A DNA stretch of 64,000 nucleotides, taken from the NCBI RefSeq assembly GCF_900114655.1, contig NZ_FOTT01000005.1, positions 1 through 64,000 on the forward strand, given 5' to 3'. Numbering within the stretch: the stretch's first letter is position 1; every line of letters starts with the position of its first letter. The notes under the pieces were generated by a model. The model was not told where the DNA came from, did no database searches, and was given only the letters and a program-made list of their open reading frames with translations. This DNA is from Candidatus Frackibacter sp. WG13 (GTDB lineage: Bacteria; Bacillota; Halanaerobiia; Halobacteroidales; Acetohalobiaceae). This document shows, in pieces, positions 674-22,353 of the stretch. A program made the translations under genes and the position numbers.

Positions 674-697
674 TAATGGAGGATAGTTGAGATATAA

Positions 698-1075: not shown

Positions 1076-1097
1076 AAGTGAATAGTATGGAATTAAT

Positions 1098-1820: not shown

Positions 1821-2043
1821 AGTTTAAGGAAATGTTAGATTAGCGATCAGTAAATACATTTATTTGTCAAAATAATGTTTGATTATGGTTAATGAGTATT
1901 ATTTATGATTTTATACAGGAAATTAACATATGAATATAGTAGTATACTATAGGACACTCCATGATATTTATGTAAAATTTAGAGTTAGATATATAATAGT
2001 TATTCACTTGGAAATTATAGTCTTAAATAAGGAGTGGGAAGTG

Positions 2044-5000: not shown

Positions 5001-5085
5001 GAATTATAACCAAGAAGAAGTTAGTGATCATTTTGAAGCAATTCAATTGCTTGATAGGAAAAATATTGAAATTGTTTACGACTAA
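2044..5085 (+). CDS. Large sigma-region-4/HARE-HTH protein, first gene of the BREX-like operon
   Basis: Multi-domain predicted DNA- or RNA-polymerase-associated protein of 1014 aa. The start is GTG 2044 (or 2041), placed by AAGGAG at 2029-2034; the upstream in-frame ATG at 1930 has no ribosome site. In order: an N-terminal helical region; two tandem 71-residue repeats (from ~165 and ~236; DNA period 213 bp, e.g. YKMFRNFCKAKGIKSI and YRMFREFCKIKGIKTI); a sigma-70 region-4-type HTH at ~496-520 (LSELGNEFGLSRERVRQLEN); two HARE-HTH-like winged helices (~673-725 and ~737-792, GKPVHYKQVA and KKPLHYKEVA) as in RNA polymerase delta subunit; and a C-terminal ~50-residue module (~964-1013) resembling sigma region 1.1, also found in the next two genes. 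There is no sigma region 2, so it is not a normal sigma factor. A regulator or sensor role for the downstream system is inference. Confidence 0.8.
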   Translation: MDYLKELIEEKLNNKQEKLIFSVKNLAMRLFSRCGEELSKKEIIKFLDNDKRFLQINSRQFIVKEEVLNLISDEFINESEVNEDYQGVTNRLINVIKSNFPVFEISKNTILKSLKKKALVKYNQENTEENENLDTVKQDENSNQLKKFNKDTNDKIQAEMENSVDSIYEVFNSRTYKMFRNFCKAKGIKSIRGINKDLLLEFRQQKGIGDKKVKDVKNKLLKFLIDRINTLNIKSDSIFTVFRGRKYRMFREFCKIKGIKTIKQIRKDLFFDFKQQRNIGEKKAKDAENRLLKFLINKYYRSNIKNNKSSNKLYFDKVLEKLKEPKDINELKEDIKIDVDDNVFIYSLLSHGNIYYDNGYLVKKKEPQLADSLQKVGMVYKYTNNKLTDYNLQVLIDGLLKHSHKPMTIEEIEKALLVLDKRIDLNEIEEILNNDDSFKCVNYKTWINKNNKFIRHSKYKEFYGDFKQQLDEILNDLDERKKYILFNRTFISNKPTLSELGNEFGLSRERVRQLENQAIRQIMHPQRRSSYMRYFKLLEKVFVETRVMNLDGFWSHPVIKECFSNIDLDFLINFYNECNHNKEQKQIQLLYNKYLVHMKPQYYELLWRRIRNELTTKTNIAELKDIVQFFSKFMIKNEEFLKEAIFRKSNIIKIEAKLLIKEKKVYETDKIKLILSLIGKPVHYKQVAGLYNQYFTETTAHNIHSKLNSYDGDFIRVDSGTYGLTSWDCEEDIYVRDLNYQILKEEKKPLHYKEVAKKVLEHKEVEARTVYHYLIDNKRIFNYSSGLFALKEWKDDEKIASKYHINSWRIKASEQDRVYDYFLGSFNGRKGRLVSLHKISKKYYYEDHLKVSKKIIKRMQIKNQISGIDTKGRIYNLYFDQELRAFKGIKKFLKDNDLKIGDYLYVEYYSDQIVKFHKQSEYEEDYKPILETDLHQVNSNIVINEVLNASKADIKDGQRIEIVDLESAIEYGLRYGHVNFNELIKLNYNQEEVSDHFEAIQLLDRKNIEIVYD
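2536..2940 (+). repeat. Tandem 213-bp repeat inside the sigma-like gene
   Basis: Two in-frame units start at 2536 and 2749 with GATAGTATTT and stay alignable to about 2940 (e.g. both end in TTATTAAAAT followed by TTAATT). They encode duplicated 71-residue helical units with a Gly-Ile/Gly-Glu-Lys-Lys turn (KGIGDKKVKD and RNIGEKKAKD) like a helix-hairpin-helix. Close DNA similarity suggests a fairly recent internal duplication. Confidence 0.8.
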
Positions 5086-5111: not shown

Positions 5112-5348
5112 ATGAGCAATGTTAATGATGAATCTGTTAGTAAGATTATGGATGTTATTTTTGGTGGTAAAGATAAAACAAAACAAAGTATTACTGATTT
5201 AAAATCAGCAATTGAATTTGGTTTGGAGAATGGTTATGTTAACTTTAAAGACTTAATGAAGTTTGATTATGAATCAGAAGAAGTAAAGGACCAATTTGAG
5301 GCAATACAGATACTGGATAATAAGAATATTGAGATAATTTATGATTAG
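5112..5348 (+). CDS. Small stand-alone copy of the sigma-1.1-like module
   Basis: A 78-aa protein that is almost entirely the module ending the preceding protein: compare LKSAIEFGLENGYVNFKDLM with LESAIEYGLRYGHVNFNELI, and the endings FEAIQILDNKNIEIIYD and FEAIQLLDRKNIEIVYD. ATG 5112 is preferred (GGTGAT upstream) over the in-frame TTG at 5100. It sits 26 bp after the large gene and 13 bp before the next. The module resembles sigma-70 region 1.1, a domain that masks the DNA-binding parts of sigma. A free copy could act as an anti- or competitor partner of the large protein; that is inference. Confidence 0.75.
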   Translation: MSNVNDESVSKIMDVIFGGKDKTKQSITDLKSAIEFGLENGYVNFKDLMKFDYESEEVKDQFEAIQILDNKNIEIIYD

Positions 5349-5361: not shown

Positions 5362-6879
5362 ATGAATAAAAAGATTAAAGGATTAATTGATAAACGATAT
5401 AAAAGAATAACAGGTACTGATGGTATTATATCTATTGCCAACCTTCAACAGATGATCTTAGCTAAACTAGGTATTCAGGTTGATAGAATTAAGATTAAAG
5501 AATATCTAGAACAGCACCCCAATCTATTACCATTAACTGTTAATCAATTTATTTGTTATGACTATTTTAGCAATATATTTTGGAATTTTATTGCTTATAA
5601 AACTTCACTGAAGGATATAAAAGAGTTTTTAAGTGAGCTATATTCTGTATTAAAAGAGGTTAAAGTAGAAATTCTATTAGAAGCATTTTGTCCAGAGTTT
5701 TTAGAATTTATAAAAGGAGAATATACTACTCCTTTACAAGTTCGTAAGAATGAGGATATTTATACCATTAAAAGTGAAGAAGACTTTGTTGATTTTGGTA
5801 TGGATTATGGTTATGTATCAGCAGATATGGTTAAAGAATATATGAATCGATATAATGTGGATGAAAGTAGTGATCAATTTGAGTTAGTTACCTATTTAAA
5901 TGAAAAAAATATTGATTATTCTTCTAATAGTAATGGTGAGAAGATTTTGAAAGATGACAAAAAGTTCATTAAGAACTATTATGCTCTACAAGATGTTGAA
6001 TATAGTAAAGATAATAATGTTTTATTAGTAGATTTAAGGTTAAATGAATTATTAGCTTTATTATTTTTAATGCAAGATGAGCAAAAATTAATGAAAAAAC
6101 TAGAGAATGCTTCAAGACATAAGTATAAACATGACCTAGTTAGGCTTAGTTTAATAGATCAAAACTTATCGCCTACTAAGAAAGGAGAAAAATTATCAGA
6201 TGCAATAATAGAGCTTATTTATGAGTATATGAATTATAAAGATATAATCACAATTAAAAAGGAGAATTATTCTATTAATGAGTTATGTAAGTCAAAACCG
6301 ATTAAAAAATTGCAACATAATGAAGAGTTTTTGAATGATGCAGCTCCTTATTTAAGAAGACATTTTCTTTCTCTACCTGCTGTTAAATTATTTGTAAATT
6401 GGATCAAGACAATTAATAAGCAGGGTAAGAACTCTATGTTTGATATATTCCAATATTTGATTAAAAATGAGCATTATAGTGAATTGGAATGGCTTTTGAT
6501 AGGTAAAAAACCTAGTTGTGGTTTAAAGCCAATAAGGAAAGGAACAGAAGTATGTATAAATTGCAAAAAACATGTTTCTAGTTGTTGTTTAACACCAGAG
6601 CTTAATAGCTTAAATGATAAGAAAGAGTACTTATTAAATTTAAGAAATCAAAAAATTAAAAAGTATATTGCTGAAATGAAAGAAGATAACTATGAAATGA
6701 TTAAAAAGCCTATTTATATTAAGTTTTTAGCACCTTATTGTCTTGTAGTACGAGTAAAGATCTTCATGCGAAAAATCGGAATATTAAAATCGACTAATAA
6801 TATTTTATATAAAGATAGTGGTAAATATTGTCCAATAGAAGATAAATGGGAGATAGATAACTATGATATTTTGGTGTGA
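5362..6879 (+). CDS. Uncharacterised operon protein with internal sigma-1.1-like module and Cys cluster
   Basis: 505 aa, no recognised family. The N-terminal ~125 residues contain a small winged-helix-like unit (IISIANLQQMILAKLGIQVD). At ~133-187 there is a divergent copy of the module shared by the two upstream proteins (EEDFVDFGMDYGYVSADMVK, FELVTYLNEKNIDY). The central part is Lys/Asp/Glu-rich and helical. Near ~391-415 a Cys cluster (CGLKPIRKGTEVCINCKK, then SSCC) suggests a metal site. The ATG at 5362 follows GAGGATGA. Its last 17 bases overlap the start of brxP, implying translational coupling and a linked function. I cannot name the activity. Confidence 0.75.
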   Translation: MNKKIKGLIDKRYKRITGTDGIISIANLQQMILAKLGIQVDRIKIKEYLEQHPNLLPLTVNQFICYDYFSNIFWNFIAYKTSLKDIKEFLSELYSVLKEVKVEILLEAFCPEFLEFIKGEYTTPLQVRKNEDIYTIKSEEDFVDFGMDYGYVSADMVKEYMNRYNVDESSDQFELVTYLNEKNIDYSSNSNGEKILKDDKKFIKNYYALQDVEYSKDNNVLLVDLRLNELLALLFLMQDEQKLMKKLENASRHKYKHDLVRLSLIDQNLSPTKKGEKLSDAIIELIYEYMNYKDIITIKKENYSINELCKSKPIKKLQHNEEFLNDAAPYLRRHFLSLPAVKLFVNWIKTINKQGKNSMFDIFQYLIKNEHYSELEWLLIGKKPSCGLKPIRKGTEVCINCKKHVSSCCLTPELNSLNDKKEYLLNLRNQKIKKYIAEMKEDNYEMIKKPIYIKFLAPYCLVVRVKIFMRKIGILKSTNNILYKDSGKYCPIEDKWEIDNYDILV

Positions 6880-8431
6880 TAATTGTTCAGTTCCTATTAT
6901 TGATAATCATAAATGCCCTAGTTGTAAAAAACAAATAAAAGAAATTGCTAAGGATGTCAGACCAGTTTTTTTTGAAGAAAAAGTTTTAGTAAGTTTACTT
7001 TTAGAAGAGGAGATAGTTGATAAAAGCGTATGGGCTACTAAACGCAATACGTATATCGTTAATGGGCAAAAATACAAACTTAATTATAATAAGATAAAAG
7101 ATAAAAAGTGGGATTTGAATAATATTAGACAGAAACTTAAAAAAAGAATTTCAGAAACTGATAAAAAAATGAATGATTATAAATGTAAATTTATTAGAAA
7201 CAATAGTGAAAGATTTGATTATATAGAGACTGAAGCTAAAAAGTATATTATGAAAGTTACAAATGAATATAAATCAAAAAATTACATTCCTGTTATTTCG
7301 TTCAGTGGGGGAAAAGATTCTACAGTTATTTCTCATTTAGTAAGGAATGCTTTATCAAAGCAAAAAATAATTCATGTTTTTGGAGATACAACTCTTGAGT
7401 TTCCTTATACATATAAATATATAAAGAAATTTATGAAAAAAAATACGTTAACCCCATTCTTTGAGCAAGCAAGCGATGAAAATTTTATGGATTTATGTTC
7501 AGTATTTGGTCCTCCTAGCAGGTTAGAAAGATGGTGTTGTACAATTTTTAAAACAAATCCTATAGGGCAAAGCATTAGCACTTTCCCTGGTAATAAAAAG
7601 GCGTTAACTTTTATGGGGATTCGCAAATGGGAATCAAGAGAACGAAGTGAATATGAAAGAACTCAAAAGAAATCAAAGATATCAAGACAAATTTCTAGTT
7701 TTCCAATTTTAAATTGGAAAGATTCAGATGTATGGTTATATATCTTATCTAAAGATGTATTATTTAATAAGGCTTATAAATTAGGTTTTACTAGAGTGGG
7801 TTGTTGGTTATGTCCAAATAATTCTGTGTGGTCTGAGTTTTTAACGAGGTTATATATGCCTGAAAAATATGAGGAATGGAGAAGTTTATTAATCAAATTT
7901 GCTAAAAAAGCTGGAAAGCCAGACTATCAAGTATATGTAGATGAGGGTTATTGGAAGGCTAGAAGGGGTGATAAAGGAATAGACACTCAATTAAAAGAAG
8001 TTGATGCTAAAGAATGTACCATAAATGACAATGCCAAAAGTTATACATTAAATAGAAAAATAAAAAAAGACTTTATAGAGTTAATAAAACCTTTTGGAGA
8101 AGTTAATTCACAAGTTGACGGGAGAAAGTTTGAATGGAAGGTGAAAAGTGATAAAACTGAATTTAAAATTACAGGAATACTTAATACTAAACTAATTAAA
8201 GTTATTCCTGATAAAGTTGAAAATATTAGTACTTTCCATAAAAGATTTTTATGTCAATTAAGAAAATATGAAAATTGCATTTATTGTTCTGCTTGTGAAA
8301 ATACTTGTTCTAGCTCTGCTATAAATACAAAGAACAAAAAATACACTATAGATAACAGAAAATGTATTAATTGCAAAGATTGTATAGCTAATTTTTATAA
8401 TGGTTGTTTAAAATTTGAAGCATTAAAATAG
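6863..8431 (+). CDS. brxP: BrxP-like PAPS-reductase-family protein with zinc ribbon and ferredoxin ends
   Basis: ATP-pyrophosphatase fold of the PAPS reductase/DndC type, the marker gene of BREX type 4. Residues 5-21 form a zinc ribbon (CDNC...CPSC). The PP-loop SFSGGKDST lies at ~146-154, FGDTTLEFP at ~172, RWCCTIFKTNP at ~223 and GCWLCPN at ~313; those four Cys match the Fe-S ligands of DndC-like enzymes. The tail (~472-520) is a ferredoxin-like double Cys motif, CIYCSACENTC and CINCKDC. DndC uses ATP and cysteine-derived sulfur to make DNA phosphorothioate; transfer of that role to this protein is inference, helped by the desulfurase at the end of the same operon. 522 aa, intact. It overlaps the gene before and lies 16 bp from the gene after. 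Confidence 0.88.
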   Translation: MIFWCDNCSVPIIDNHKCPSCKKQIKEIAKDVRPVFFEEKVLVSLLLEEEIVDKSVWATKRNTYIVNGQKYKLNYNKIKDKKWDLNNIRQKLKKRISETDKKMNDYKCKFIRNNSERFDYIETEAKKYIMKVTNEYKSKNYIPVISFSGGKDSTVISHLVRNALSKQKIIHVFGDTTLEFPYTYKYIKKFMKKNTLTPFFEQASDENFMDLCSVFGPPSRLERWCCTIFKTNPIGQSISTFPGNKKALTFMGIRKWESRERSEYERTQKKSKISRQISSFPILNWKDSDVWLYILSKDVLFNKAYKLGFTRVGCWLCPNNSVWSEFLTRLYMPEKYEEWRSLLIKFAKKAGKPDYQVYVDEGYWKARRGDKGIDTQLKEVDAKECTINDNAKSYTLNRKIKKDFIELIKPFGEVNSQVDGRKFEWKVKSDKTEFKITGILNTKLIKVIPDKVENISTFHKRFLCQLRKYENCIYCSACENTCSSSAINTKNKKYTIDNRKCINCKDCIANFYNGCLKFEALK

Positions 8432-8447
8432 ACTAGAGGTGATAAAA

Positions 8448-9353
8448 ATGGGGTTTGCTAAACATAGAACATTTTATATAAGAGAGGGATGGTTGCCCAA
8501 AACTTTAAAACTAATAAATGAAAAACCTTATATATTTACTCCAGCAAATAGAGAAGAGGCTATTGATGAATTGGGAGTAGGTAAAACTATGGTAGCAGCT
8601 TTGCGTTTTTGGATGCAGGCTACTGGTTTAACGATAGAAGGTAGAGGAACAAAGGGGATGATTGAACAAGAAATAACTGATTTAGGTAAATTTATTTTAA
8701 ATCATGACCCTTTCTTTGAAGATACAAAAACCTTATGGTTATTACACTATAAGCTAGTGACACAAGAATCTTTAGCTACAAGCTGGTATTGGTTCTTTAA
8801 TTTTTATCAAGAAAATTTTTTTGACCAAACTTCTTTTATAACAGAACTGAAGGCTTATACAAAAAACAACTTAAAAAAAGAGGTTGCAGAAAGCTCCTTA
8901 AAGAAGGACTTTCACTGTTTTAAGAATACTTACCTTTATGAACGAAAGTATAGTTATCAGAATAATCCAGAAGATATTTTGACTTCTCCCTTAGTTGATT
9001 TAGAATTAGTTACTAAGAATGGGAAGCAAGGCTTTCAATTAAATATTCCTTCTTTTAATAAATTAAGTAGTGATATACTCTATTATGTGATTTTAAACCA
9101 ATACTCTGTTAATGAGAATGAACAAATTTCATTTACTCAGTTATTAGAAACAGAAAATAGTATTGGAAAGGTCTTTAGATTAAAAAGAAAATCTTTATTG
9201 AGACATTTAGAATTTTTAGAAGAAAAAGGTTATTTGGAAATTCAAAGAGGGTTTGGCCATAATTTAATAACACTACACCAAACAAATAAATTTAAAGTTT
9301 TAGAAGATGCATATACAGATATAGACACTAATTATGGATTAGAGGGGATTTAA
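8448..9353 (+). CDS. DUF4007 family protein (BREX-associated)
   Basis: 301 aa; ATG 8448 follows AGAGGTGAT. It opens MGFAKHRTFYIREGWLPKTL, the hallmark of DUF4007 proteins that accompany PAPS-reductase-type defence genes. A helical/winged-helix core follows (ELGVGKTMVAALRFWMQATG, then ITDLGKFILNHDPFFED and LLHYKLV). The C-terminal part has another winged helix (LKRKSLLRHLEFLEEKGYLE). The 'GVGKT' here is not a P-loop, since no Walker context surrounds it. It ends 2 bp before the giant ATPase and so is probably made with it. The biochemical role is unknown; a DNA-reading adaptor is plausible. A divergent relative is encoded at 12948. Confidence 0.8.
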   Translation: MGFAKHRTFYIREGWLPKTLKLINEKPYIFTPANREEAIDELGVGKTMVAALRFWMQATGLTIEGRGTKGMIEQEITDLGKFILNHDPFFEDTKTLWLLHYKLVTQESLATSWYWFFNFYQENFFDQTSFITELKAYTKNNLKKEVAESSLKKDFHCFKNTYLYERKYSYQNNPEDILTSPLVDLELVTKNGKQGFQLNIPSFNKLSSDILYYVILNQYSVNENEQISFTQLLETENSIGKVFRLKRKSLLRHLEFLEEKGYLEIQRGFGHNLITLHQTNKFKVLEDAYTDIDTNYGLEGI

Positions 9354-9355
9354 AT

Positions 9356-12300
9356 ATGACTAGACTACAGGAGATTATAAATACTGCAAAAGGATTTAAA
9401 TATTCAATTAATCTTGAATATGATCTTAACGATCCACTTAAGATAGAAAATTACATACCAACTGATAAAGCAATGAAAATTATGAATGATATAGTTAATG
9501 GTTTTATATTTGAAGATGCCAATCGTTCCCATATCTTATTAGGCTCTTACGGTACTGGAAAATCTCATTTAACGATGGTATTAGCATCGTTATTATCAAA
9601 AAAAATAAATAAAATAGATAATGATATGGCATATACTGACCTCTTTTATCGCATTAGTAATTATAAACAAGATTTTGCTAATAATATTTCTCAAATCATA
9701 TCAGAAAAGTACTTGATTGTTTTACCGGAAGAAGGTTTGTTTGATTTTGAGCAGAGTATTATTTTAGGATTAAAGAAGGCGTTGAAGAATCAAGGGTTAG
9801 AAAGTTATTTGCCTAAAACCTTTTATGATACTATTATTGAAAAAATTGAATTTTGGGCAGAAGATTTTCCTACGACTTATCATAATTTAAAGGAAATATT
9901 GCAGAATGAATATGAATTAACCTTAAAAGAGTTTATTTCAGGAATAAAGAAGTATGATAAGAATTATTATCATATATTTTTAGAATTACATCCTAAATTG
10001 ACTGCTGGCTCTAAATTTACACCTTATAATAGGGTTAGATTAGTAGAATTGTTATCTAGTATTGAAAGTGTTTTAAAAAATTATGGGTATAAAGGGGTCT
10101 TAATTGCTTTTGATGAATTTGGTAAATTTTTAGAGGAGAATATAGATAATTTTAATATTAAAGATATTCAAGATTTAGCAGAATATTGTAATGATGAAAG
10201 TAATAAGTTAAACACTAGTTTACTATTAATTACTCATAAAAATTTAGCACAATATACAACTAATACTAAAGAAATGACTGAAGAATGGCGTAAGGTAGAA
10301 GGAAGATTTAAAAGACATAATATTACTAAACATTCTAAGCAGATTTATGAATTGATTTCTAAAGTTATTATTAAAACTAAAGATGGATGGCAAAAGTTTA
10401 AGGAATTGAATAAAGAAAATTTTAAAGATCTTATGTTTTATTTACAAGAGAGTAACTTATTTGTTGATTTAACGTTGGAGGAATTAAAAGATTGGATCTT
10501 ATTTGGATGTTATCCTTTACACCCAGCAACAGCCTTTGGGTTATTTAATTTATCAAAGTTAATTGCTCAAAATGAAAGGACTTTATTTACCTTTTTATCG
10601 CAACAGGAAAAATATGGTCTAAATTACTTTTTGAAAGAGGCAGATTCTGATTTTCCCTTAGTAGGATTAGATCAACTCTATGATTATTTTTTAGATTTAA
10701 TTAAACAGGAAGATGAAAATAGTAGAATTTATGGGGTGTGGAAGAAAGCTCATCGTAGTTTGCAAAAGTTAAATAATGACGAAGAAGTAGCAAAGCGGTT
10801 TATTAAAAGTTTAGCGGTTATTAATATTATTTCTAAATTTAGTCGGTTAGCTCCTACTCCTGAAAATATTAGGAATAACTTAGGCTTAAATAGAAAAAAA
10901 TTCAAAGAGGTTGAAAAGCTTCTTTTAGAAAAAAAAGTGATTTTTTATCGTAAAAGCTTAAATCATTATAAGTTCTTTGATGGTAGTGATTTAAATATTA
11001 AGGCTAAGATTAAAGAAGTAAGTAAGTCCAGAAATGAATATTTTGATCCGATAGTTAAATTAAATCAGAATTATCTTTTATCACCTGTCTTAGCTCATCG
11101 TTATAATTTTAAAAATAATATGTTACGATTCTTTACATCAGAATACTTAAACATACAAGACATTACTAAAGAAAAAATAAGGGGTAGCATTCAAGAAAAA
11201 TATCTTGATGGCAAAATATTTATAATTTTACCTTCCAGTCAAAATGAAATAAAAGAAGCTAGAAAAAGAATTCAAGAGATTAATCATAAGCAAGCAATCT
11301 TTCTTTTACCTAAAGAACATATGAATTGGAAAGCATTATTAAGCGAAATTGATAGTATTGAATATCTTTTGACTCAAAAAGATTTCCTTGCTCAGGATCC
11401 GATTATTAAATTAGAATTAGAATTTCATTTAGAAGAAAAGCAAGAACAATTACTAGCGAAACTAAATCAAATTTATCATCCTACTTATAACCAAGCTGAT
11501 TTTTATTATCAAGGGAAGAAAATAAAATTAAAAGATAAGAAGGAATTATCAAAGTTAATTTCTGAAATTTGTAAAGAAGTGTTTACTTCTACTATGATAA
11601 TTAATCATGAAATGATTAATCGTAATCAAATTACTGGAATAATGAAAAAAGTACGCAAAGATATTATTAAAAAATTATTATCAGAAAATGATTTACAATC
11701 AGAATTAGGTTTTAGTAATTTTACAGCTGCTCACACGGTAGTTCGTAGTGTTTTAGTTAAGAATGATATATTAAAAGAAGTTGATAATCAGATTAAGATA
11801 GTAGTACCTGAAACTATAGGAAACGGGCAAGGTGTAGTACAAGAGATAAAACAATTCATTGCAAAAGCTAAAGATGAAAGGGTTAATTTTAAGAATATAT
11901 ATGACAATCTTCAGTCAGCTCCTTATGGGTTACGGAAAGGATATCTTCCTATTTTACTAAGTGCTTACTTAAGAAAATATAGAGGTAGAATTGTAATAAC
12001 TAAGAAAGATGAAGATAGAGAAATAAGACCAGCTATCTTTGATGAGATAGAAGAAAATCCTCAAGTGTTTAAATTAGGAATTGACTTATGGGATGATGAA
12101 AAAGAGAGCTACATATTAAATCTAGAGAAAATTTTCAATCAATATATAGATGATGAATTAAAGAAACGAAATAGATTAAAAGCTCTTTGGGAAGGCATGA
12201 AGAAGTATTATCGAAGCTTACCTCATTATACTCGTAATACTAATAGTTTAGCTGAAGAAACGATGATGTTTAAGAAAATATTAAATAGAGACTTTAAGAA

Positions 12301-12934
12301 TACTCATCAGCTATACTTTGAAATCTTCCCAAATAAATTAAGTGAGAACGATTTTAATAAATTGGCAGATCAAATTGAGAATATAATTTATAAGTTAAAC
12401 CAAGCATTAGATGAATTATATAGTGAAATAGTTATTAAATTAAATGACTTAAATGAGCTAAAAGTTTATAATAGTGATACAATAAAAGGTAAATTTTTTA
12501 ATTGGTATCAGCAGTTACCTTCTAAAATTAAAAATCATCATTTTAATTGGCAAGTTAATAGTATTTTTGATCTAATAAAGGATTCTAATATGAAAGATAA
12601 TAAGGAATTTATAAATGAATTAGCAGAGAGGTTGACTGGTTTTACTCCTGCTCAATGGAGGGATGAACATTTAAATGAGTTTTTAGCTAATATCAAAGAA
12701 ATGTTTATAGAAATCAATGACTATAATCAAAATGAAAAACAACATGGAGAAGTTAAATTATCATTTATACAAGAAGGTAGTCAAAAGGAATTAAGTTTTA
12801 ATCAAGAAGAAGTATCAGATTTAGGAGAAATGTTATTATCTAAAGTAAAAACTGATTTTGATAATTTTGGTCATTCGATTAGTAACAAAGAAAAACTAAC
12901 AATTTTATTTGAATTGTTAAAAGAACAGTTATAG
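9356..12934 (+). CDS. Giant BrxC/PglY-like P-loop ATPase, first copy
   Basis: 1192 aa. Walker A is GSYGTGKS at residues 63-70 and Walker B is VLIAFDEFGKFLEE at ~252-265. YPLHPATAFGL, a motif of the BrxC/PglY family, lies near residue 386, and SAPYGLRKGYLPILLSAYL near ~851. The C-terminal part is helical. BrxC/PglY ATPases are core subunits of every BREX system and are thought to drive assembly or movement on DNA. This copy is clearly related in layout to the second copy at 14367 but diverged. The ATG at 9356 follows GAGGGG. No frameshift or lost motif is visible. Assignment to BrxC-like is by motif; which of the two copies is the orthologue of classical BrxC is open. Confidence 0.8.
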   Translation: MTRLQEIINTAKGFKYSINLEYDLNDPLKIENYIPTDKAMKIMNDIVNGFIFEDANRSHILLGSYGTGKSHLTMVLASLLSKKINKIDNDMAYTDLFYRISNYKQDFANNISQIISEKYLIVLPEEGLFDFEQSIILGLKKALKNQGLESYLPKTFYDTIIEKIEFWAEDFPTTYHNLKEILQNEYELTLKEFISGIKKYDKNYYHIFLELHPKLTAGSKFTPYNRVRLVELLSSIESVLKNYGYKGVLIAFDEFGKFLEENIDNFNIKDIQDLAEYCNDESNKLNTSLLLITHKNLAQYTTNTKEMTEEWRKVEGRFKRHNITKHSKQIYELISKVIIKTKDGWQKFKELNKENFKDLMFYLQESNLFVDLTLEELKDWILFGCYPLHPATAFGLFNLSKLIAQNERTLFTFLSQQEKYGLNYFLKEADSDFPLVGLDQLYDYFLDLIKQEDENSRIYGVWKKAHRSLQKLNNDEEVAKRFIKSLAVINIISKFSRLAPTPENIRNNLGLNRKKFKEVEKLLLEKKVIFYRKSLNHYKFFDGSDLNIKAKIKEVSKSRNEYFDPIVKLNQNYLLSPVLAHRYNFKNNMLRFFTSEYLNIQDITKEKIRGSIQEKYLDGKIFIILPSSQNEIKEARKRIQEINHKQAIFLLPKEHMNWKALLSEIDSIEYLLTQKDFLAQDPIIKLELEFHLEEKQEQLLAKLNQIYHPTYNQADFYYQGKKIKLKDKKELSKLISEICKEVFTSTMIINHEMINRNQITGIMKKVRKDIIKKLLSENDLQSELGFSNFTAAHTVVRSVLVKNDILKEVDNQIKIVVPETIGNGQGVVQEIKQFIAKAKDERVNFKNIYDNLQSAPYGLRKGYLPILLSAYLRKYRGRIVITKKDEDREIRPAIFDEIEENPQVFKLGIDLWDDEKESYILNLEKIFNQYIDDELKKRNRLKALWEGMKKYYRSLPHYTRNTNSLAEETMMFKKILNRDFKNTHQLYFEIFPNKLSENDFNKLADQIENIIYKLNQALDELYSEIVIKLNDLNELKVYNSDTIKGKFFNWYQQLPSKIKNHHFNWQVNSIFDLIKDSNMKDNKEFINELAERLTGFTPAQWRDEHLNEFLANIKEMFIEINDYNQNEKQHGEVKLSFIQEGSQKELSFNQEEVSDLGEMLLSKVKTDFDNFGHSISNKEKLTILFELLKEQL

Positions 12935-12947
12935 AGGGGGATAAGAT

Positions 12948-13766
12948 ATGGCAAAAAGAGATTATGAAAATGAATATTCACAACAAAGTTTTAGTTTAGA
13001 GGTCTCATATATTCTAGATTTAGTTAAGTTAGTAAAGGAACAAGAGGTTTTTACCAATAAAGATTTAGCACAAACAATGGGCATAGGTGAGCCTAAAATA
13101 ACGTGTTTCATCCAATATGCTAAAATTATAGATTTACTAGATGACAAAAGAAGTATAACTAATTTTGGAAGAAAAATTTTAAATATGGAGTATAGCTATG
13201 ATTATTTATATTCGTTATTATATTATAAACTTGTAAGAGGAAGTAATAATGGGGCACATTTATACTTCTCAAAAATTGTTAATGAAATATTATATGATAT
13301 TTCTTTTCAACTTAATAATCAAATTTCATTGCAGGACTTAAAAATAGAAATGCTTGATCATAATATTAGGAATATTGATGAAAATGATCATTATAATTAT
13401 ACAAGACAAGCAATCAACACATTAAGCAACCCTAATACAGGATTCGGAAAACTAGGAATGGTAAAAAAAGTCGAAGATAATTATGAAATTTATTCTTATT
13501 GGCCTGAACCTTTAATATGTGCTTATATTATTTATGATCGCTGGGAAGAAGGTTCAGTAGCAATGAAGATAGATGATATTATACGAGGTCATTATAATTT
13601 TGGTCGTATATTCTTCCTAGATGAAGAAACAGTAATGGGGATTTTAGAAGATTTGCAACAGATGGAGTATATTTCAATAGAAACAATTGCTGGGTTAAAT
13701 CAGATTAGGATCAATCCTAAAAAGTCAAAAGATGATATATTAGAGGCGATTGTTGATGAAGCATGA
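12948..13766 (+). CDS. Divergent DUF4007-like winged-helix protein
   Basis: 272 aa; ATG 12948 follows GAGGGGG. It is not a known family by direct recognition, but its layout parallels the DUF4007 protein at 8448. Here TNKDLAQTMGIGEPKITCF is followed by SITNFGRKILN and YSLLYYKLVRG; there the same order reads ELGVGKTMVAALRF, EITDLGKFILN and LLHYKLV. The N-terminal ~70 residues form a predicted winged helix. The C-terminal half contains WPEPLICAYIIYDRW and a further HTH-like part. It precedes a small P-loop gene and the second giant ATPase, so it may be the adaptor for that copy. Overlap of 11 bp with the next gene indicates coupling. Confidence 0.65.
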   Translation: MAKRDYENEYSQQSFSLEVSYILDLVKLVKEQEVFTNKDLAQTMGIGEPKITCFIQYAKIIDLLDDKRSITNFGRKILNMEYSYDYLYSLLYYKLVRGSNNGAHLYFSKIVNEILYDISFQLNNQISLQDLKIEMLDHNIRNIDENDHYNYTRQAINTLSNPNTGFGKLGMVKKVEDNYEIYSYWPEPLICAYIIYDRWEEGSVAMKIDDIIRGHYNFGRIFFLDEETVMGILEDLQQMEYISIETIAGLNQIRINPKKSKDDILEAIVDEA

Positions 13767-14367
13767 ACTATCAACCGAACAAAAAGATATATTTAATCAG
13801 CTTAGATTAATTCAAAAAGAAGAAAAATTCTATCGGCGCAAAAATTTTATACTTCTAGGAGAATTAGGCGTTGGCAAAAGCACCTTATTAAAAGATTTAG
13901 GGAATCAAAAAGGATTTCATTACATTAACTTTACTAAGGACTATTTAGAAGAATTTCATGATAGAGGTTATGTTAGTTTTAGATATTTAACCAGTAATGA
14001 CTTTTTAAAGTATATAAGTGAACAATTTTCTTTTTCGTCTTCATTCTATTTAATAGATGCTTTAGAGCCAATAATTATTTCTATTTATCAAAATGGTGGG
14101 GAAAGAATGTTAACTAATTTCTTTAATAATTTCTTCATTCAAAAACCAAGAGGTCATCTATTATTATCAATCTCTGAATTAACAAGTATAAACTTGAAAG
14201 AGATTATAATTAAAAGTGAGTTTAGTGATAGAAATCTCTTTTATCTGCAAGAAGATGAGAGTATCAGAAATGAATTAGCAGATAAATATAACTTACCTAA
14301 GGTTAAAGTTAATAACTTTAAGAATAATCATTATTTTAAAGCTTATAGAGGAGGGAGTAGTTCATAA
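13756..14367 (+). CDS. Small P-loop ATPase (BrxF/BrxD-like position)
   Basis: 203 aa; ATG 13756 is preferred (AGAGG nine bases upstream) over in-frame TTG 13750/13753. Walker A is GELGVGKS at residues 35-42. A Walker B-like strand, HLLLSISELTS, lies in the middle, and no further domain follows. In several BREX types a small ATPase accompanies the giant one (BrxF in type 3, BrxD in type 2); the size and position here fit that pattern, but the sequence is too divergent to assign the name. It ends with TAATG, sharing one base with the next start, which is tight coupling to the second giant ATPase. Confidence 0.65.
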   Translation: MKHELSTEQKDIFNQLRLIQKEEKFYRRKNFILLGELGVGKSTLLKDLGNQKGFHYINFTKDYLEEFHDRGYVSFRYLTSNDFLKYISEQFSFSSSFYLIDALEPIIISIYQNGGERMLTNFFNNFFIQKPRGHLLLSISELTSINLKEIIIKSEFSDRNLFYLQEDESIRNELADKYNLPKVKVNNFKNNHYFKAYRGGSSS

Positions 14368-17300
14368 TGAAGATTAAAGACTTAGTAAGTTTAAGAAGTT
14401 TTCAGCCTGTAATTAATTTAAAATGGGCCGATGATAAGAATGAACAATTAAGTTTATTAGAGAATTATATTTTAACCGAAGACTTAGCAGAACTTTTTAC
14501 AGATGTGTTAGAAACAATTACTATGAAAAGATCACCAGAAAGATGTGATCAATTAGGTGGAGATATTGATTCAGTAGATGTTCAACGTTCTCATATAATA
14601 AGTGGTCAGTACGGTACTGGTAAATCTTATTTTCTTTTGATGTTAAGTATAATTTTAGAGTTGAAAAATGATAGATTAGCAGAAGAGTTATTAGATAAGG
14701 TTAAAGAATTTACAGACTTACATTATCAATTAGATCATATAATTGATGAAATGAAGTACTTAGTTGTTAGAATCAATGGAGAAAACGAAAATGAAAAACA
14801 TTTTGATGATGTAATACAAGAAGCAGTAATCAATCGCCTCCATCAAGAATTTGATAACGTAGTTCTAAAGAGTAACTATCAAAACCTTTTAGATAATTTA
14901 ATTGCACATAAAGAACATGATGTTAGAAGTAAACTATTAGAAGAAGTCTTAAACCCAAAGAGTTATAACTATCAAGATTTATTAGAAGGACTAAAGGGGC
15001 ATCAAAGAGAAGCAAAAGATAGGTACATAGACTTAATGAAAGAAGCAGGTTTAAGTAGTGGTGATGATTTTAAGAATTTAGAAGAATTTATTGAGGATGT
15101 TAATGAATTTTTAATAAGTCAAGGATATGATGAACTGATTATTATTTTAGATGAATTTTCTGCTTATTTAGATGCTTCGGTTGAAGCAAGACGTAGTAAG
15201 ATAGATTTAGGTAATATTCAAACTTTAGCTCAACTGACTGCTCCTACTTCCAAATATAATATTTCTTTTATTACCTCAACTCATGTAGACATAAAGGAGA
15301 TTCTAAATCAAGCTTTTACAAACCAAGAAGATATCAACAAGGTATTTGGTAGGTTTAAACAACGTCAAATTGCGTTCAATCAAGGAAATGAATTAATAAA
15401 AGATACTATAAAGATAGATAAGAGTAAATTTAATCAAATTAAACAAAAACATTTGGCGTTAATTACTCAATTGGAGAATCAATATGGAGTGTCAGTAGAA
15501 GATTATTATCCTTTACACCCAGCAAGTTTAATATATCTACAACCTGTAGCACAAAAATTCGCTCAAAAAGATAGAACGCTGTTTGTTTTTCTAAAAGAAG
15601 TAGTTAAAGAGAGGTATTTTAATGAAGATGTTGAGGTTAATGGTGAATTGAACTTTATCCAATTAGATGATATTTTTGATAAATTTTTACCTGCTTTTGA
15701 ACAAGATCGTAATTTGATTAAAGTTTATAATCAAATGAGAGAGATAGCAGATAGTGAATTAGCAACTAAGATTAATAAAGCTTTAGTCATTAGTTATGTT
15801 TCTTTATTATCTACAGGAGCAAGTGCAAAAAGAACTGCCGGGCTTTCTAAAGAAGATCTACAAAATATATATTTTGTAGAAGAGAATCAAGTAACTAAAG
15901 CACTGGACCACTTAGTAGAAGATAATCGTAGTCATATTGTCTTTAATGATGATAAATATCAATTAGTAATTAGTAATACAGGAATAAACTTAGAGCAAGA
16001 AATATCTAAGGAAGCACAAAATGTTAATCCGTATCGAGAATTAAGGCGTTTATTAAAAGAAGAAGAGAATAGTTTAGATATTAAAAGGCAGTATAATTTA
16101 AAGTATAATAGAGGTCTTTATCCATTAAGCAGAGAGTTAGAAGGGAAATTAACTACTGCTGAAGATTTTACTGATGTTAAAGATTTAGAAGACTATTTTA
16201 GAACTAATAAGGATGGTAAACTTACATTTATAGTACCTAAATTTAATGAGAAATATAATTTAGCTGATTTTAAAAACAAATATGCACCTAAATTTCAAGA
16301 ATTGCCTGCTAATGTTGCGTTGGCTTTACCAAAGAAGATATATTTTAAAGAGAAAGATCTGAAAGAATATGGAGCGATTAAAATATTAGAAACTAATGAC
16401 GAGATAATTAAGAATGATGATTTAACTAAGTTATTAGGACAACGCAAACGAAAGCTTGAAGGAAAGATTAGAAATAGATTTTTAAGAAAGTTTGGTAAAG
16501 TCAATAACTTTACTTTTATATTTGGTCAAGGAATTGTTAGAGATGATATTAGACAAGATAAAGAACTATTTAAAGAATTATTATATCAATATTATGATAA
16601 GTTTCCTTTAGAGATTGAAGTAGAAAATTTTGATAGTCGGTCAGCGTCTAATTCAGTTATCAAGCGTATGATTGCTACTGGTGAAGATTTGATAAGCAAG
16701 AGTTCTAGTTCTGTTTTTCAGAAACAGATTTTTAATACTATGAAACCATTAGACCTGATTACTATTGAAGAGCAACCAGATAATTATAAGGTTAAGATGA
16801 AGATTCCAAGGGAAGAAGTAAGTCAGAAATCTTATCAAATTTGGCAGATCATTACTGATGATAATATGTCAATTGAAGAGAAATTTGAAACTTTAGAAAG
16901 TGCTCCTTATGGTCTAAATGAAGCATTAATTGAACTTTATATAGCTGTAGCTTTAGGTCTTGGTAAGTTTCGTTTGAAAGATAGGAAAGGCAAAGTTGTT
17001 ACTGCTCCAAATAAAGATCATATTGTTAACATTAAGAATAGTAATTATGAGATGGAAGAAGTTCCTGATACACACGTTGGGAAGAAGGAAAAAGTGAAAG
17101 AAGTGTGGCAAATCTTATCTAAAATTATTCCAAACTCTCAATATAGAAGTTTTGACCCTCATGGTAGAAAGGAAGATAATAAATTCTTTGCTATATTGGG
17201 AAGAGAAATAAAAGCAGCTATTAATAATTTGGATAGAGATAAAGATGTTATGGAAGGTAGAGGTTTAAATACTAAACCATTAGCTAACTTAAAAGATGAA

Positions 17301-18341
17301 TTAATAAAAGTTACTAAGAGTATGAGTCCAGAAAAGCTATATGAGAAATTAATTGAGTTAGTTGATAATCTTTATCCTGAAAAGGAATATAATGCTACTT
17401 TAAAGGAAATAGAAGATTTGATTGATAATTTAGATGTATTTAACAATAAGAAGAAAAGAATTAACCATCTTTCAAAGCAATTAGATAATTTAAAAGGGAA
17501 AATACACATACTAAGTGATTATTCTAATTTAAAGGAAAAACTAAATAATGTAAAAGAAATGTGGAGTAATTATCAAAAGGAGCCGTTTAATTTTACTCTT
17601 ATTTCAGAAATAGAAGATGAACTTAAGATGACAATTGCTGGATATAATCAGAAATATAAAGAAGCACATGACGCTTATTATCAAAAGTTTGAGGATGGAA
17701 AAGAAAAAATTCTAAATGGACAGCAAGATTATATAGAATTAATAAAGAAATTTGAAGCAATTAATTTTGAAATTACTAAAGTTTCTGCATATATTAATGA
17801 ATTGCATCAGTTTAAGCCTTGTGACCAATTAACTATAAATAATGACGAAGTAGCAAAATGTAGTTGTAATTTGAAAAGTTTACAGTCAGTAGAGAATAGA
17901 GCAGCAGATATTGAAAAGAAAATTAACCTTAAAAGAAAACAAATAGCTAATATATATACTAATTATATTGATGATTTTAACGCTAATCAAGGAAAGATTA
18001 ATAGATATTTAGAAGAAAATCTTCCTGATAAATTAGATGACTGGAATTTTATTATTGGAGCAATTAATGATGATGCAATAGCTCATAAAGATAAATTAAA
18101 AGTTAAATTAGAAGACTTAGCTCCTGAAATTAATGAAGCACTTTCTGAAACTGAAGATGAAGAAGAAGTGCAAAAAACTAACAGAGTTAAACTAAATGAA
18201 TTTATGCAGCAATTAGAGAGTAAGGTTAAGGCTTATGGTAGAAATAATATATCTTTTGCGGATATAAAGGATATATTTAACGAAGTATGTAATGAGTTGA
18301 ATGACATTAAAGACTATGAAGGATTAAAACTTGGAGAGTGA
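14367..18341 (+). CDS. brxC: Giant BrxC/PglY-like P-loop ATPase, second copy
   Basis: 1324 aa. Walker A is GQYGTGKS at residues 80-87 and Walker B is LIIILDEFSAYLD at ~257-269. YPLHPASLIYLQ at ~383 and ESAPYGLNEALIELYIAV at ~845 are the BrxC/PglY-type signatures. A long coiled-coil/helical C-terminal third contains two CxxC-like cysteines near ~1170 (CDQLT...CSC), a possible metal site not seen in the first copy. It is the closer fit to classical BrxC because PglZ and BrxL follow directly. It is 5 bp from the pglZ start. Intact, no frameshift seen. The role in BREX is established as essential, though its mechanism is not settled. Confidence 0.82.
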   Translation: MKIKDLVSLRSFQPVINLKWADDKNEQLSLLENYILTEDLAELFTDVLETITMKRSPERCDQLGGDIDSVDVQRSHIISGQYGTGKSYFLLMLSIILELKNDRLAEELLDKVKEFTDLHYQLDHIIDEMKYLVVRINGENENEKHFDDVIQEAVINRLHQEFDNVVLKSNYQNLLDNLIAHKEHDVRSKLLEEVLNPKSYNYQDLLEGLKGHQREAKDRYIDLMKEAGLSSGDDFKNLEEFIEDVNEFLISQGYDELIIILDEFSAYLDASVEARRSKIDLGNIQTLAQLTAPTSKYNISFITSTHVDIKEILNQAFTNQEDINKVFGRFKQRQIAFNQGNELIKDTIKIDKSKFNQIKQKHLALITQLENQYGVSVEDYYPLHPASLIYLQPVAQKFAQKDRTLFVFLKEVVKERYFNEDVEVNGELNFIQLDDIFDKFLPAFEQDRNLIKVYNQMREIADSELATKINKALVISYVSLLSTGASAKRTAGLSKEDLQNIYFVEENQVTKALDHLVEDNRSHIVFNDDKYQLVISNTGINLEQEISKEAQNVNPYRELRRLLKEEENSLDIKRQYNLKYNRGLYPLSRELEGKLTTAEDFTDVKDLEDYFRTNKDGKLTFIVPKFNEKYNLADFKNKYAPKFQELPANVALALPKKIYFKEKDLKEYGAIKILETNDEIIKNDDLTKLLGQRKRKLEGKIRNRFLRKFGKVNNFTFIFGQGIVRDDIRQDKELFKELLYQYYDKFPLEIEVENFDSRSASNSVIKRMIATGEDLISKSSSSVFQKQIFNTMKPLDLITIEEQPDNYKVKMKIPREEVSQKSYQIWQIITDDNMSIEEKFETLESAPYGLNEALIELYIAVALGLGKFRLKDRKGKVVTAPNKDHIVNIKNSNYEMEEVPDTHVGKKEKVKEVWQILSKIIPNSQYRSFDPHGRKEDNKFFAILGREIKAAINNLDRDKDVMEGRGLNTKPLANLKDELIKVTKSMSPEKLYEKLIELVDNLYPEKEYNATLKEIEDLIDNLDVFNNKKKRINHLSKQLDNLKGKIHILSDYSNLKEKLNNVKEMWSNYQKEPFNFTLISEIEDELKMTIAGYNQKYKEAHDAYYQKFEDGKEKILNGQQDYIELIKKFEAINFEITKVSAYINELHQFKPCDQLTINNDEVAKCSCNLKSLQSVENRAADIEKKINLKRKQIANIYTNYIDDFNANQGKINRYLEENLPDKLDDWNFIIGAINDDAIAHKDKLKVKLEDLAPEINEALSETEDEEEVQKTNRVKLNEFMQQLESKVKAYGRNNISFADIKDIFNEVCNELNDIKDYEGLKLGE

Positions 18342-18345
18342 TAAG

Positions 18346-20943: not shown

Positions 20944-20955
20944 AAGGAGTGAAAA

Positions 20956-22353
20956 GTGAGTATGGAAGAATGGGAAAAAAAATTTAAAGATAACTTCGGT
21001 TCTGCAGTTGTTGATAAAGAAGTTGCATTAAAGAATGAAGTTGATGATTTACCTCGTTATGTTTCAGAATACTTATTAGGTTATTTTTGTCAAGATGGAG
21101 TAACCGAAGAAAACTTGAAAGAAATGCACCAGTATGTTAAAGAATGTCGTGTTGAAGGTAGAGCAAAGGAAAAAGCAAGGCATAAATTACAGACAAATTT
21201 TAGGATGAAAGTGATAGATAAGTTTAAAGTAAAGATTAATTTAACTAAAAAGAATGAACAAGAAAATAATTTAGAAATTCCAAGTATGGGAGTTACAGAT
21301 GCTCAAGTTTATAATAGTATTTTAAAAGATAATGAAAGATTATTAATTGATGGTCTATGGGGGTTAGGTGAAGTAAAGTATAATCCAGAAATAAAAACAA
21401 TAGAATTAACAAAGTTCAAACCATTTCAATTAGCAAATATAAAAATAAATGATTTTGTAGAAGCGAGAAGTGAGTTTAATAGCGAAGAATGGGTTAATGC
21501 TTTAATTAGTACCATAGGATTAAATTATAATGCTTATTCTAAGCGCGAAAAGATGATTTTAATTTCCCGCTTACTACCAATGGTTGAAAATAATCTTTTT
21601 ATGATGGAATTTGGTGCTCCTGGTACTGGTAAGACTTATGCTTTTGAAAATCTTTCCTCTTATTCGCGAGTAATTTCTGGGAGTAAGGTTACAGCTCCAC
21701 AATTATTCTTTAATTTAAAGACTAAGCAGGAAGGATTATTGCTGCAGTATGATGTAGTATTATTTGATGAAATTGATAAAGTGAAAAAGAAAGGGATCGA
21801 TGAAGATGTTATAAATAAGTTATATCAATACCTTGCTTCTGGTAAGTTTGATCGAGGGGGAGTTGAAAAAACAAGTAATTGTGGTGTCGTAATGGTAGGG
21901 AATCTACCTAAAAATAAATTAAATAAAGCCGAAATGTTAGATGAATTATTACATGAGGACTTAAAACATGCTGCATTTTTAGACCGTTTAGCAGGGGTTA
22001 TCCCTGGCTGGGAGTTAAAGAGTATTAAAGATAGTAATGTGAGTTTAACTAAACATTATGGGTTTACCGCAGATTACTTTAGTGAAATTCTTAATCGCTT
22101 ACGCAGAAGTAACTATGATTATATACTTAATCGGATTAAGTTTGAAAATGCTGCCATTAGAGATGAGCAAAATATTAAAAAGATTGTTTCTGGCTTTATT
22201 AAGTTATTGTATCCTAATGGACAACTTACTGATAAACAGTTAAGTAAATTAACTCAATATGCTGTAGAGTATAGACAGTTTGTTGTAGATCAGAATTATA
22301 ATATTAATGGAAAAGAAGACTTCAATAAGACAATTGGGTTTAGAATTAAATAA
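20956..22353 (+). CDS. brxL: BrxL, short AAA+ form
   Basis: 465 aa. GTG 20956 is chosen (AAAGGAGTG just upstream); ATG 20962 is an alternative. The AAA+ core has MEFGAPGTGKTYAF (P-loop at 220-227), VVLFDEIDKVKKKG as Walker B and a sensor stretch CGVVMVGNLP. There is no Lon-like protease domain: the protein ends soon after the AAA+ lid. That is not a truncation, because the short ~470-residue BrxL family lacks it whereas type 1 BrxL is ~680 aa. BrxL hexamers bind DNA and are needed for phage exclusion in type 1. It closes the recognisable BREX core, and the desulfurase follows 17 bp later. Confidence 0.88.
   Translation: MSMEEWEKKFKDNFGSAVVDKEVALKNEVDDLPRYVSEYLLGYFCQDGVTEENLKEMHQYVKECRVEGRAKEKARHKLQTNFRMKVIDKFKVKINLTKKNEQENNLEIPSMGVTDAQVYNSILKDNERLLIDGLWGLGEVKYNPEIKTIELTKFKPFQLANIKINDFVEARSEFNSEEWVNALISTIGLNYNAYSKREKMILISRLLPMVENNLFMMEFGAPGTGKTYAFENLSSYSRVISGSKVTAPQLFFNLKTKQEGLLLQYDVVLFDEIDKVKKKGIDEDVINKLYQYLASGKFDRGGVEKTSNCGVVMVGNLPKNKLNKAEMLDELLHEDLKHAAFLDRLAGVIPGWELKSIKDSNVSLTKHYGFTADYFSEILNRLRRSNYDYILNRIKFENAAIRDEQNIKKIVSGFIKLLYPNGQLTDKQLSKLTQYAVEYRQFVVDQNYNINGKEDFNKTIGFRIK

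What the first reader, a model, noticed from the sequence alone, without database searches (positions are those of the whole stretch)
8448..18341. Internal duplication: two DUF4007-like plus giant-ATPase modules in one operon
The classical type 4 set has one BrxC. Here two giant ATPases (1192 and 1324 aa) share the same order of motifs: Walker A GxYGTGKS, Walker B with DEF, a YPLHPA segment and SAPYGL. Each is preceded by a winged-helix protein whose landmarks line up (LGVGKTMV/MGIGEPKI, ITDLGKFIL/ITNFGRKIL, LHYKLV/LYYKLV), though the second was not an obvious DUF4007 member. A small P-loop gene belongs to the second module only. This could separate a modification complex from an exclusion complex.
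Basis: partly seen in the sequence, partly recalled or inferred. Interest (0 to 1): 0.72.

Follow-up and report, generated by a model that had tools for sequence, protein, structure and literature searches.

The report
Sulfur-marking and phage-blocking defence operon
This gene cluster joins a DNA sulfur-marking machine to a separate phage-blocking machine, each with its own DNA-binding protein and large ATPase; the same pairing turns up in distant bacteria, so the link between marking one's own DNA and blocking foreign DNA could be tested part by part.

Summary
Both winged-helix proteins score above Pfam's DUF4007 cut-off (254 and 49 bits). The model of the second matches crystallised SspB (Z 16.3, 249 residues). 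Both ATPases are SspC-like. But it is no internal duplication: grouping the two ATPases together is rejected (p-AU 4.5e-38), and neither lies in the type-4 BrxC clade. Two older modules stand side by side: a phosphorothioate (PT) writer, SspD-SspB1-SspC1 (6863-12934), and a BREX-like exclusion chassis, SspB2-small protein-SspC2-PglZ-BrxL (12948-22353). The five-gene chassis recurs intact, in that order, at nine other loci from distant groups. SspBCD adjoins it in 8 of the 10 loci, the window included; in one genome writer and chassis lie on different contigs; on one plasmid an adenine methyltransferase stands in the writer's place, and a viral contig shows a partial second case. The desulfurase behind BrxL looks like a host gene. 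Verdict: new variant of a known kind (PT-based BREX).

The parts
6863..8431 (+). SspD/BrxP-like PAPS-reductase-type sulfurtransferase with 4Fe-4S motifs; writer module
   Evidence: PADLOC BrxP 3.9e-90, SspD 4e-15; Pfam PAPS_reduct 128 bits; SGGKDS at 7304-7321, CxxCxxC at 8276 and 8363
8439..9353 (+). SspB1, DUF4007 DNA-binding protein of the writer
   Evidence: Pfam DUF4007 254 bits; PADLOC SspB 4.2e-65; PDB SspB 6juf 1.1e-20; falls in the writer clade
9356..12934 (+). SspC1, AAA+ ATPase of the writer
   Evidence: PADLOC SspC 1.4e-145; writer clade, SH-aLRT 96; Walker A 9542-9565
12948..13766 (+). SspB2, second DUF4007 protein; first gene of the exclusion chassis
   Evidence: Pfam DUF4007 49 bits, cut-off 27; AF2 model pLDDT 73.7, SspB 6juf Z 16.3, 249 aligned, rmsd 4.2
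13750..14367 (+). small P-loop protein, BrxF/BrxB-like (assignment weak)
   Evidence: PADLOC BrxF 4.3e-4, NCBIfam BREX_3_BrxF 0.0033, below its cut-off; Walker A GELGVGKS 13858-13881; a small protein holds the same position in the other chassis loci
14367..18341 (+). SspC2, AAA+ ATPase of the exclusion chassis (BrxC-like role)
   Evidence: PADLOC SspC 1.5e-26; SspC profile 167 bits against type-4 BrxC profile 75 bits; PDB BrxC-BrxB 9zn5 0.0015; 32% identical to an orphan relative, L125
18331..20943 (+). PglZ, alkaline-phosphatase-fold putative effector
   Evidence: Pfam PglZ 49 bits, cut-off 25; PorX-like PglZ domain 8ted 3.9e-9; DAMRWD, TDISR, TTDHG, HGGVS
20956..22353 (+). BrxL, AAA+ protein, short form of 465 aa
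   Evidence: TIGR02688 400.8 bits, cut-off 329.3; PDB BrxL 8emc 3.8e-65 over its residues 8-465 of 679
22371..23519 (+). cysteine desulfurase (EF2568 family); possible sulfur donor but probably a host chromosomal gene, membership uncertain
   Evidence: TIGR01977 493 bits; 63% identical to a desulfurase of same-order genome G150 that is not the one beside its SspDBC, only 41% to the one that is
5362..6879 (+). protein of unknown function overlapping sspD by 17 bp; possible operon member
   Evidence: no family match over cut-off; gap -17 to SspD
1930..5085 (+). sigma-70 region 4 + HARE-HTH protein upstream; possible associated regulator or sensor
   Evidence: Pfam Sigma70_r4 1.1e-8 and HARE-HTH 8.4e-10; homologue beside the methyltransferase-paired chassis on pIAD-21

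Best explanation
The operon is a phosphorothioate-based BREX-like defence system in which the two jobs that studied BREX systems do with one ATPase are split between two. Writer: SspD activates sulfur (from a cysteine desulfurase, the 22371 product or a housekeeping one) and, guided by the DNA-binding SspB1 and the ATPase SspC1, puts phosphorothioates at a chosen site in host DNA. Exclusion chassis: SspB2 (the BrxA-like winged-helix part), the small BrxB/BrxF-like protein, SspC2 (the BrxC part), PglZ (presumed nuclease or phosphodiesterase effector) and BrxL form a separate complex that inspects DNA and blocks replication of DNA lacking the mark. Shown here: gene content, intact motifs, families, recurrence of the chassis, its separation from the writer and the exchange of the writer for an adenine methyltransferase. 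Inferred from known homologues: PT chemistry, complex formation, PglZ and BrxL action. Not shown: that the chassis reads PT, and that the writer works without the chassis in this operon.
For: Family assignments. The chassis order SspB2-small-SspC2-PglZ-BrxL is intact at 10 loci: the window; Ktedonobacter; Thermomicrobium; Pseudanabaena; Abditibacteriota plasmid pIAD-21; genomes G659, G712, G661, G595, G523. SspBCD lies beside it in 8 of those 10 (for Ktedonobacter). On pIAD-21 an Eco57I-type adenine methyltransferase replaces SspBCD, and none of the SspB, SspC or SspD profiles matched elsewhere on that plasmid. Viral contig L294 has SspB2-small-methyltransferase-OLD nuclease-SspC2, cut by the contig end. 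In G523 chassis and writer are on different contigs, the chassis near metabolic genes. Writers without this chassis are common: 17 of 17 other unfused SspD loci fetched from the phylum surveys show no BrxL match. Trees of B and C agree: writer, type-4 and SspFGH-type proteins each form one group in both. Published type-1 work describes BrxB-BrxC-PglZ as a core complex and a BrxB mutant that keeps most methylation but loses restriction (PMC13326643, abstract and passages).
Against: No experiment. Chassis ATPases do not form one clade (p-AU 1.7e-7): the Thermomicrobium/Pseudanabaena type groups with SspFGH-type ATPases, so 'one chassis' rests on shared gene order more than on one ancestry. In published type-1 BREX, BrxB, BrxC and PglZ are needed for modification too, so SspC2 might also serve marking. 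The small protein matches a Walker A pattern in only 6 of 15 homologues, so its naming is weak, and its structure model failed (pLDDT 38.8). The methyltransferase-for-SspBCD exchange rests on one complete and one truncated locus.
Confidence: 0.72

Rival explanations
1. One mixed machine: SspB1/SspB2 and SspC1/SspC2 assemble together (for instance a two-subunit ring), and both pairs are needed for marking as well as for exclusion.
For: The pairs are packed in one run of genes in the window with gaps of -17 to +13 bp and in Thermomicrobium, G659, G712, G661 and G595. BrxC of type 1 is needed for both activities (PMC13326643, passages).
Against: Writers alone are common, and SspBCD with IscS is published to make PT (PMC8092258, passages). 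The chassis occurs with a methyltransferase and no SspBCD on that plasmid. In Ktedonobacter the two modules are on opposite strands, in G523 on different contigs.
Confidence: 0.13
2. Two unrelated defence systems that merely sit together: a solitary PT writer, and a BREX-like chassis that works without any mark.
For: Each module is found without the other. In the window's family a writer sits with other effectors (PbeA, PbeC) near a homologue of the same neighbour gene.
Against: SspBCD adjoins the chassis in 8 of 10 intact loci from distant groups; in Thermomicrobium, G659, G712, G661 and G595, as in the window, writer and chassis form one same-strand run; in Pseudanabaena only a toxin-like gene pair on the other strand interrupts it. 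When SspBCD is absent a different DNA-marking enzyme takes its place.
Confidence: 0.12
3. A recent internal duplication inside one type-4 BREX operon, the copy being redundant or decaying.
For: Two homologous gene pairs in the same order in one operon.
Against: Sister grouping of the two window ATPases rejected (p-AU 4.5e-38); the two DUF4007 proteins fall in different parts of their tree; all reading frames intact; the same two pairs recur in other phyla.
Confidence: 0.01

Closest known systems
Type-4 BREX (brxP-brxC-pglZ-brxL; PMC12839542, section 34 read)
   Same: PAPS-reductase writer, DUF4007, a BrxC/SspC ATPase, PglZ, BrxL; PT is the expected mark
   Different: Here the sulfurtransferase and DUF4007 are separate genes, there are two DUF4007 and two ATPases plus a small protein, and ATPases, PglZ and BrxL are not of the type-4 clade or best models
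SspABCD phosphorothioation module
   Same: SspD, SspB1, SspC1 are members by family score and, for B and C, by tree
   Different: Coupled to a PglZ-BrxL chassis and not to SspE, SspFGH or Pbe; dedicated SspA doubtful
SspBCD with an SspH (HerA) module carrying its own DUF4007-ATPase pair: 7 of 7 other two-DUF4007 genomes of the window's phylum sample
   Same: A second DUF4007 + ATPase pair dedicated to the non-writer half
   Different: Effector is a DndH/SspH-like HerA protein; no PglZ or BrxL found beside it
Type-1 BREX (brxABC-pglX-pglZ-brxL)
   Same: Order DNA-binder, small STAND-like protein, ATPase, PglZ, BrxL matches A-B-C-Z-L (type-1 gene order recalled, from no call)
   Different: No PglX in the window; the PT writer takes its place. 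On pIAD-21 a methyltransferase stands upstream
HerA/FtsK-centred BREX-related capture system (PMC12839542, passages)
   Same: PglZ, BrxC-like DUF6079, STAND NTPase and DUF4007 together
   Different: Has HerA, GNAT and TGT; BrxL and a PT writer are not among the seven components named

Membership tests
DUF4007 (PF13182) | score over the curated cut-off of 27 bits | tested here: met
   254 bits (8439 gene) and 49 bits (12948 gene)
DUF4007 (PF13182) | SspB fold | tested here: met
   model of SspB2 against 6juf: Z 16.3, 249 of 272 residues, rmsd 4.2, next entry outside SspB Z 9.1; the alignment fed to AF2 held SspB sequences
SspABCD writer | SspD, SspB and SspC present, B and C in the writer groups | tested here: met
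   96*; 93
SspABCD writer | dedicated cysteine desulfurase SspA | tested here: inconclusive
   desulfurase 17 bp behind BrxL but closest to desulfurases of the order that are not PT-linked
SspABCD writer | phosphorothioate in DNA | not testable with these tools
   needs mass spectrometry
Type-4 BREX | PAPS reductase, DUF4007, PglZ and BrxL present | tested here: met
Type-4 BREX | single BrxC of the type-4 lineage | tested here: not met
   two ATPases, neither in the type-4 clade of 7 rows (100*)
Type-4 BREX | BrxP fusion of sulfurtransferase and DUF4007 (frequent, not universal, by PMC12839542) | tested here: not met
   separate genes; fused in 12 of 12 type-4 loci fetched, L058-L069
Type-1 BREX | PglX methyltransferase | tested here: not met
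   no PglX match among the genes 1232-22353 scanned; the SspD gene gives one weak MTase_II match, 1.4e-4
SspFGH-type restriction | SspG and HerA-type SspH | tested here: not met
   no SspG, SspH or HerA match among the ten window genes scanned
BrxF/BrxB small subunit | family score over cut-off | tested here: inconclusive
   NCBIfam BREX_3_BrxF 17.1 bits against 50; PADLOC 4.3e-4; structure model unusable

The most novel reading that the evidence does not exclude
The SspB2-small protein-SspC2-PglZ-BrxL set is a self-contained exclusion machine that can be licensed by different DNA marks: phosphorothioate when an SspBCD writer with its own B/C pair is plugged in, N6-methyladenine when an Eco57I-type methyltransferase is plugged in. 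BREX would then be one chassis with exchangeable writers, and the extra DUF4007-ATPase pair is what makes marking and exclusion physically independent.
Probability: 0.42. Interest if true: 0.78.

Novelty: new variant of a known kind. Interest (0 to 1): 0.62.

Why it matters
In the BREX systems studied so far one ATPase, BrxC, serves both marking and restriction, and how the two are kept apart or made to communicate is open: a 2025 review raises it for type-1 and PT-based BREX (PMC12707154, passage), and a 2026 structural paper proposes distinct but overlapping complexes (PMC13326643, abstract). Here nature has put the two jobs on two ATPases and two DNA-binding proteins, in an arrangement that recurs across distant bacteria, so single-gene deletions can ask which part marks, which part blocks, and whether the block reads the mark.

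Tried and rejected
Recent internal duplication: rejected. All chassis ATPases one clade: rejected. Reading module 2 as canonical type 4: not supported. Desulfurase at 22371 as dedicated SspA, with the chassis nested inside the writer operon: I held this after and dropped it; in Thermomicrobium, Pseudanabaena and G661 a desulfurase does follow BrxL, but in the window it looks like a host gene. Close SspC2 relatives: in 58 other genomes of the class only two hits of 26% at E 1e-15 (loci L078 and L079 not examined further), none in viral contigs by single-sequence scan; the best match of the genome scan, L125, is an orphan gene among unrelated genes. Small-protein fold: model useless. BrxF assignment: below cut-off. 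PglZ-only hits in G198 and Prevotella were other systems. VIA-align did not list BrxA; absence there proves nothing.

Rows left out: the ATPase tree used 23 writer rows picked by hand for spread from the many seen, 7 of 12 type-4 loci, 5 SspFGH-type rows and 12 chassis rows; broken or partial chassis genes of G569, G654 and Annamia, and L294 (found later), were not put in. The DUF4007 tree used 48 rows chosen likewise, with only the last 270 residues of 6 BrxP proteins. Both trees are quick searches. Of 10 two-DUF4007 genomes of the Ktedonobacter phylum, G732 was not fetched; of the 9 fetched, G569 has broken chassis genes, and G740 and G654 are split by contig ends. Of the 16 single-copy genomes of that survey I fetched 8 (G458, G708, G479, G579, G457, G587, and the fragments G691 and G539); none of the 8 shows the chassis in the fetched stretch. 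Annamia's broken copy is not counted among the ten intact loci.

Literature: PMC12839542 (section 34 and passages), PMC13326643 (abstract and passages), PMC8092258, PMC11931770, PMC10853773 and PMC12707154 (passages). The paper most likely to show such loci, Yuan et al. on type-4 BREX (Nat Commun 2026), is not held and supplementary files could not be read, so 'not described before' is not claimed; I only say that searches and the passages read show no mention of two DUF4007-ATPase pairs in one PT-BREX locus.
Full report
What is there. The stretch holds a run of closely packed genes on the + strand (gaps of -17 to +13 bp from 5362 to 22353). By family searches they are: a PAPS-reductase-type sulfurtransferase with ferredoxin-like cysteines (6863, SspD/BrxP), SspB1 (8439, DUF4007 254 bits), SspC1 (9356, PADLOC SspC 1.4e-145), SspB2 (12948, DUF4007 49 bits against a cut-off of 27), a small P-loop protein (13750, weakly BrxF), SspC2 (14367, PADLOC SspC 1.5e-26), PglZ (18331) and BrxL (20956, TIGR02688 over its cut-off). 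The alignment fed to the model contained SspB sequences, so this is support, not an independent proof.

Not a duplication. In a tree of 47 ATPases (885 columns) writer ATPases of SspBCD loci form one group (23 rows, SH-aLRT 96), with the window's SspC1 inside it next to the same-family genome G363 (L070) and the same-order genome G150 (L021). Type-4 BrxC proteins form another (7 rows, 100), placed beside the writers (92). SspFGH-type second ATPases form a third (5 rows, 99). The window's SspC2 lies with chassis ATPases, closest to L125. A tree holding the two window ATPases together is 202.65 log units worse (p-AU 4.5e-38). The DUF4007 tree (48 rows) has the same shape: writer group 93, BrxP group 100, SspFGH-type group 98. 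Against tidiness, the chassis ATPases are not one clade (p-AU 1.7e-7): the Thermomicrobium/Pseudanabaena kind groups with SspFGH-type ATPases. Several rows, the window's SspB2 among them, are on long branches, and the searches were of the quick kind.

The architecture recurs. A DUF4007 survey of the window's phylum found 30 of 398 genomes with a match and 8 with two. The seven besides the window all carry the second pair beside an SspH/DndH-like HerA protein, a related but different arrangement. A scan of species genomes led to Ktedonobacter, and plasmid searches to Thermomicrobium roseum, Pseudanabaena galeata, an Abditibacteriota plasmid and a broken copy in Annamia. A survey of 301 genomes of the Ktedonobacter phylum found 26 with DUF4007 and 10 with two copies; all nine of these ten that I fetched carry chassis genes besides SspBCD genes (Ktedonobacter itself). 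Counting only loci with all five chassis genes intact gives ten: the window, Ktedonobacter, Thermomicrobium, Pseudanabaena, Abditibacteriota, G659, G712, G661, G595 and G523. SspBCD adjoins the chassis in eight of them.

Modules come apart and the writer can change. In Ktedonobacter the modules are convergent. In G523 the chassis sits near metabolic genes on one contig and SspBCD on another. On the Abditibacteriota plasmid the chassis follows an Eco57I-type N6-adenine methyltransferase, with no SspBCD match in the rest of the plasmid. A viral contig shows SspB2-small protein-methyltransferase-OLD nuclease-SspC2, cut by its end. This natural exchange is the strongest evidence that SspB2/SspC2 belong to exclusion and SspB1/SspC1 to PT marking.

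How it probably works. By published work on homologues, SspBCD with a desulfurase installs PT (PMC8092258, passages). DUF4007 has a BrxA-like DNA-binding architecture, and small STAND-like proteins are the BrxB/BrxF parts (PMC12839542, passages). BrxB, BrxC and PglZ form a core complex, and PglZ is cited there as having nuclease activity (PMC13326643, passages). The window's PglZ aligns with the PglZ domain of a PorX-like response regulator (the name PorX is recalled) over the blocks that hold its DAMRWD, TTDHG and HGGVS motifs, and BrxL matches the solved BrxL over residues 8-465 of 679, so the C-terminal part is absent. I therefore propose a PT writer with its own B/C pair, and a B2-small-C2-Z-L complex that excludes unmarked DNA. 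The small protein's P-loop is not conserved: a strict Walker A pattern is found in 6 of 15 homologues, in keeping with a structural role like BrxB's.

What it is not. It is not canonical type-4 BREX: 12 of 12 fetched type-4 loci have the fused BrxP, the 11 complete ones have one BrxC position each (split frames in L058 and L068), and the window's ATPases, PglZ and BrxL are of another lineage or fit other models better. It is not SspFGH (no SspG or SspH among the genes scanned) and not type 1 (no PglX). The desulfurase at 22371 is closer to desulfurases of the order that are not PT-linked (63% in G150) than to the PT-linked one of the same genome (41%), so I leave it out of the core.

Novelty. 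The parts are known and at least one of these loci already seeds a defence database: the PADLOC PglZ model PDLC02549 matches the Thermomicrobium protein over its whole length at 1742 bits. In the papers held and the passages read I saw no description of a PT-BREX with two dedicated DUF4007-ATPase pairs, nor of the methyltransferase swap on this chassis (searches; 'paralog', 'two BrxC' and 'two copies' absent from the main text of PMC12839542). The most relevant paper could not be read. I therefore rate it a new variant of a known kind.

Noticed in passing
window 1930-5085: A 1051-aa protein with sigma-70 region 4 and HARE-HTH stands upstream of the system; a smaller homologue with the same two domains (HARE-HTH below its cut-off) stands directly before the methyltransferase of the chassis on plasmid pIAD-21, and short relatives follow PbeB in many SspBCD-Pbe loci.
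   Followed up: partly
window 4906-5082, 5169-5345 and about 5746-5916: Three neighbouring proteins share one segment of about 58 residues: the C-terminus of the 1930 protein, most of the 82-aa protein at 5100, and the middle of the 5362 protein (local scores 190, 77 and 91). It resembles, from memory only, sigma-70 region 1.1.
   Followed up: partly
window 269-1759 and G000:C5 start: The SSB gene and the 175-aa gene at 1232 have a second copy at the start of another contig of the same genome (97% and 94% identical); in same-family genome G363 the 1232 homologue lies 4.5 kb before an SspD-B-C-desulfurase-Pbe set. A possible insertion hotspot or mobile segment.
   Followed up: partly
L109/L110, L111/L112, L113/L114, L115/L116, L117/L118, L119/L120, L019: All seven other two-DUF4007 genomes of the phylum sample carry a second DUF4007-ATPase pair beside an SspH/DndH-like HerA gene; the protein before SspG in G370 is a 1524-aa NERD + kinase + STAND-like fusion, reminiscent of the domain fusions described for DndF (PMC10853773 passage).
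   Followed up: partly
L125 4101-8510: An orphan SspC2-like ATPase of 1469 aa (32% identical to the window's SspC2, E 2e-143) sits among unrelated genes in a Clostridiaceae MAG.
   Followed up: partly
L256: In G569 the chassis SspC2 and PglZ genes are broken into fragments while the adjoining SspBCD writer genes are open, as if exclusion can be lost while marking stays.
   Followed up: no
L294 7982-9961: An OLD-family-like ATPase with TOPRIM domain stands between the methyltransferase and SspC2 on a viral contig.
   Followed up: no
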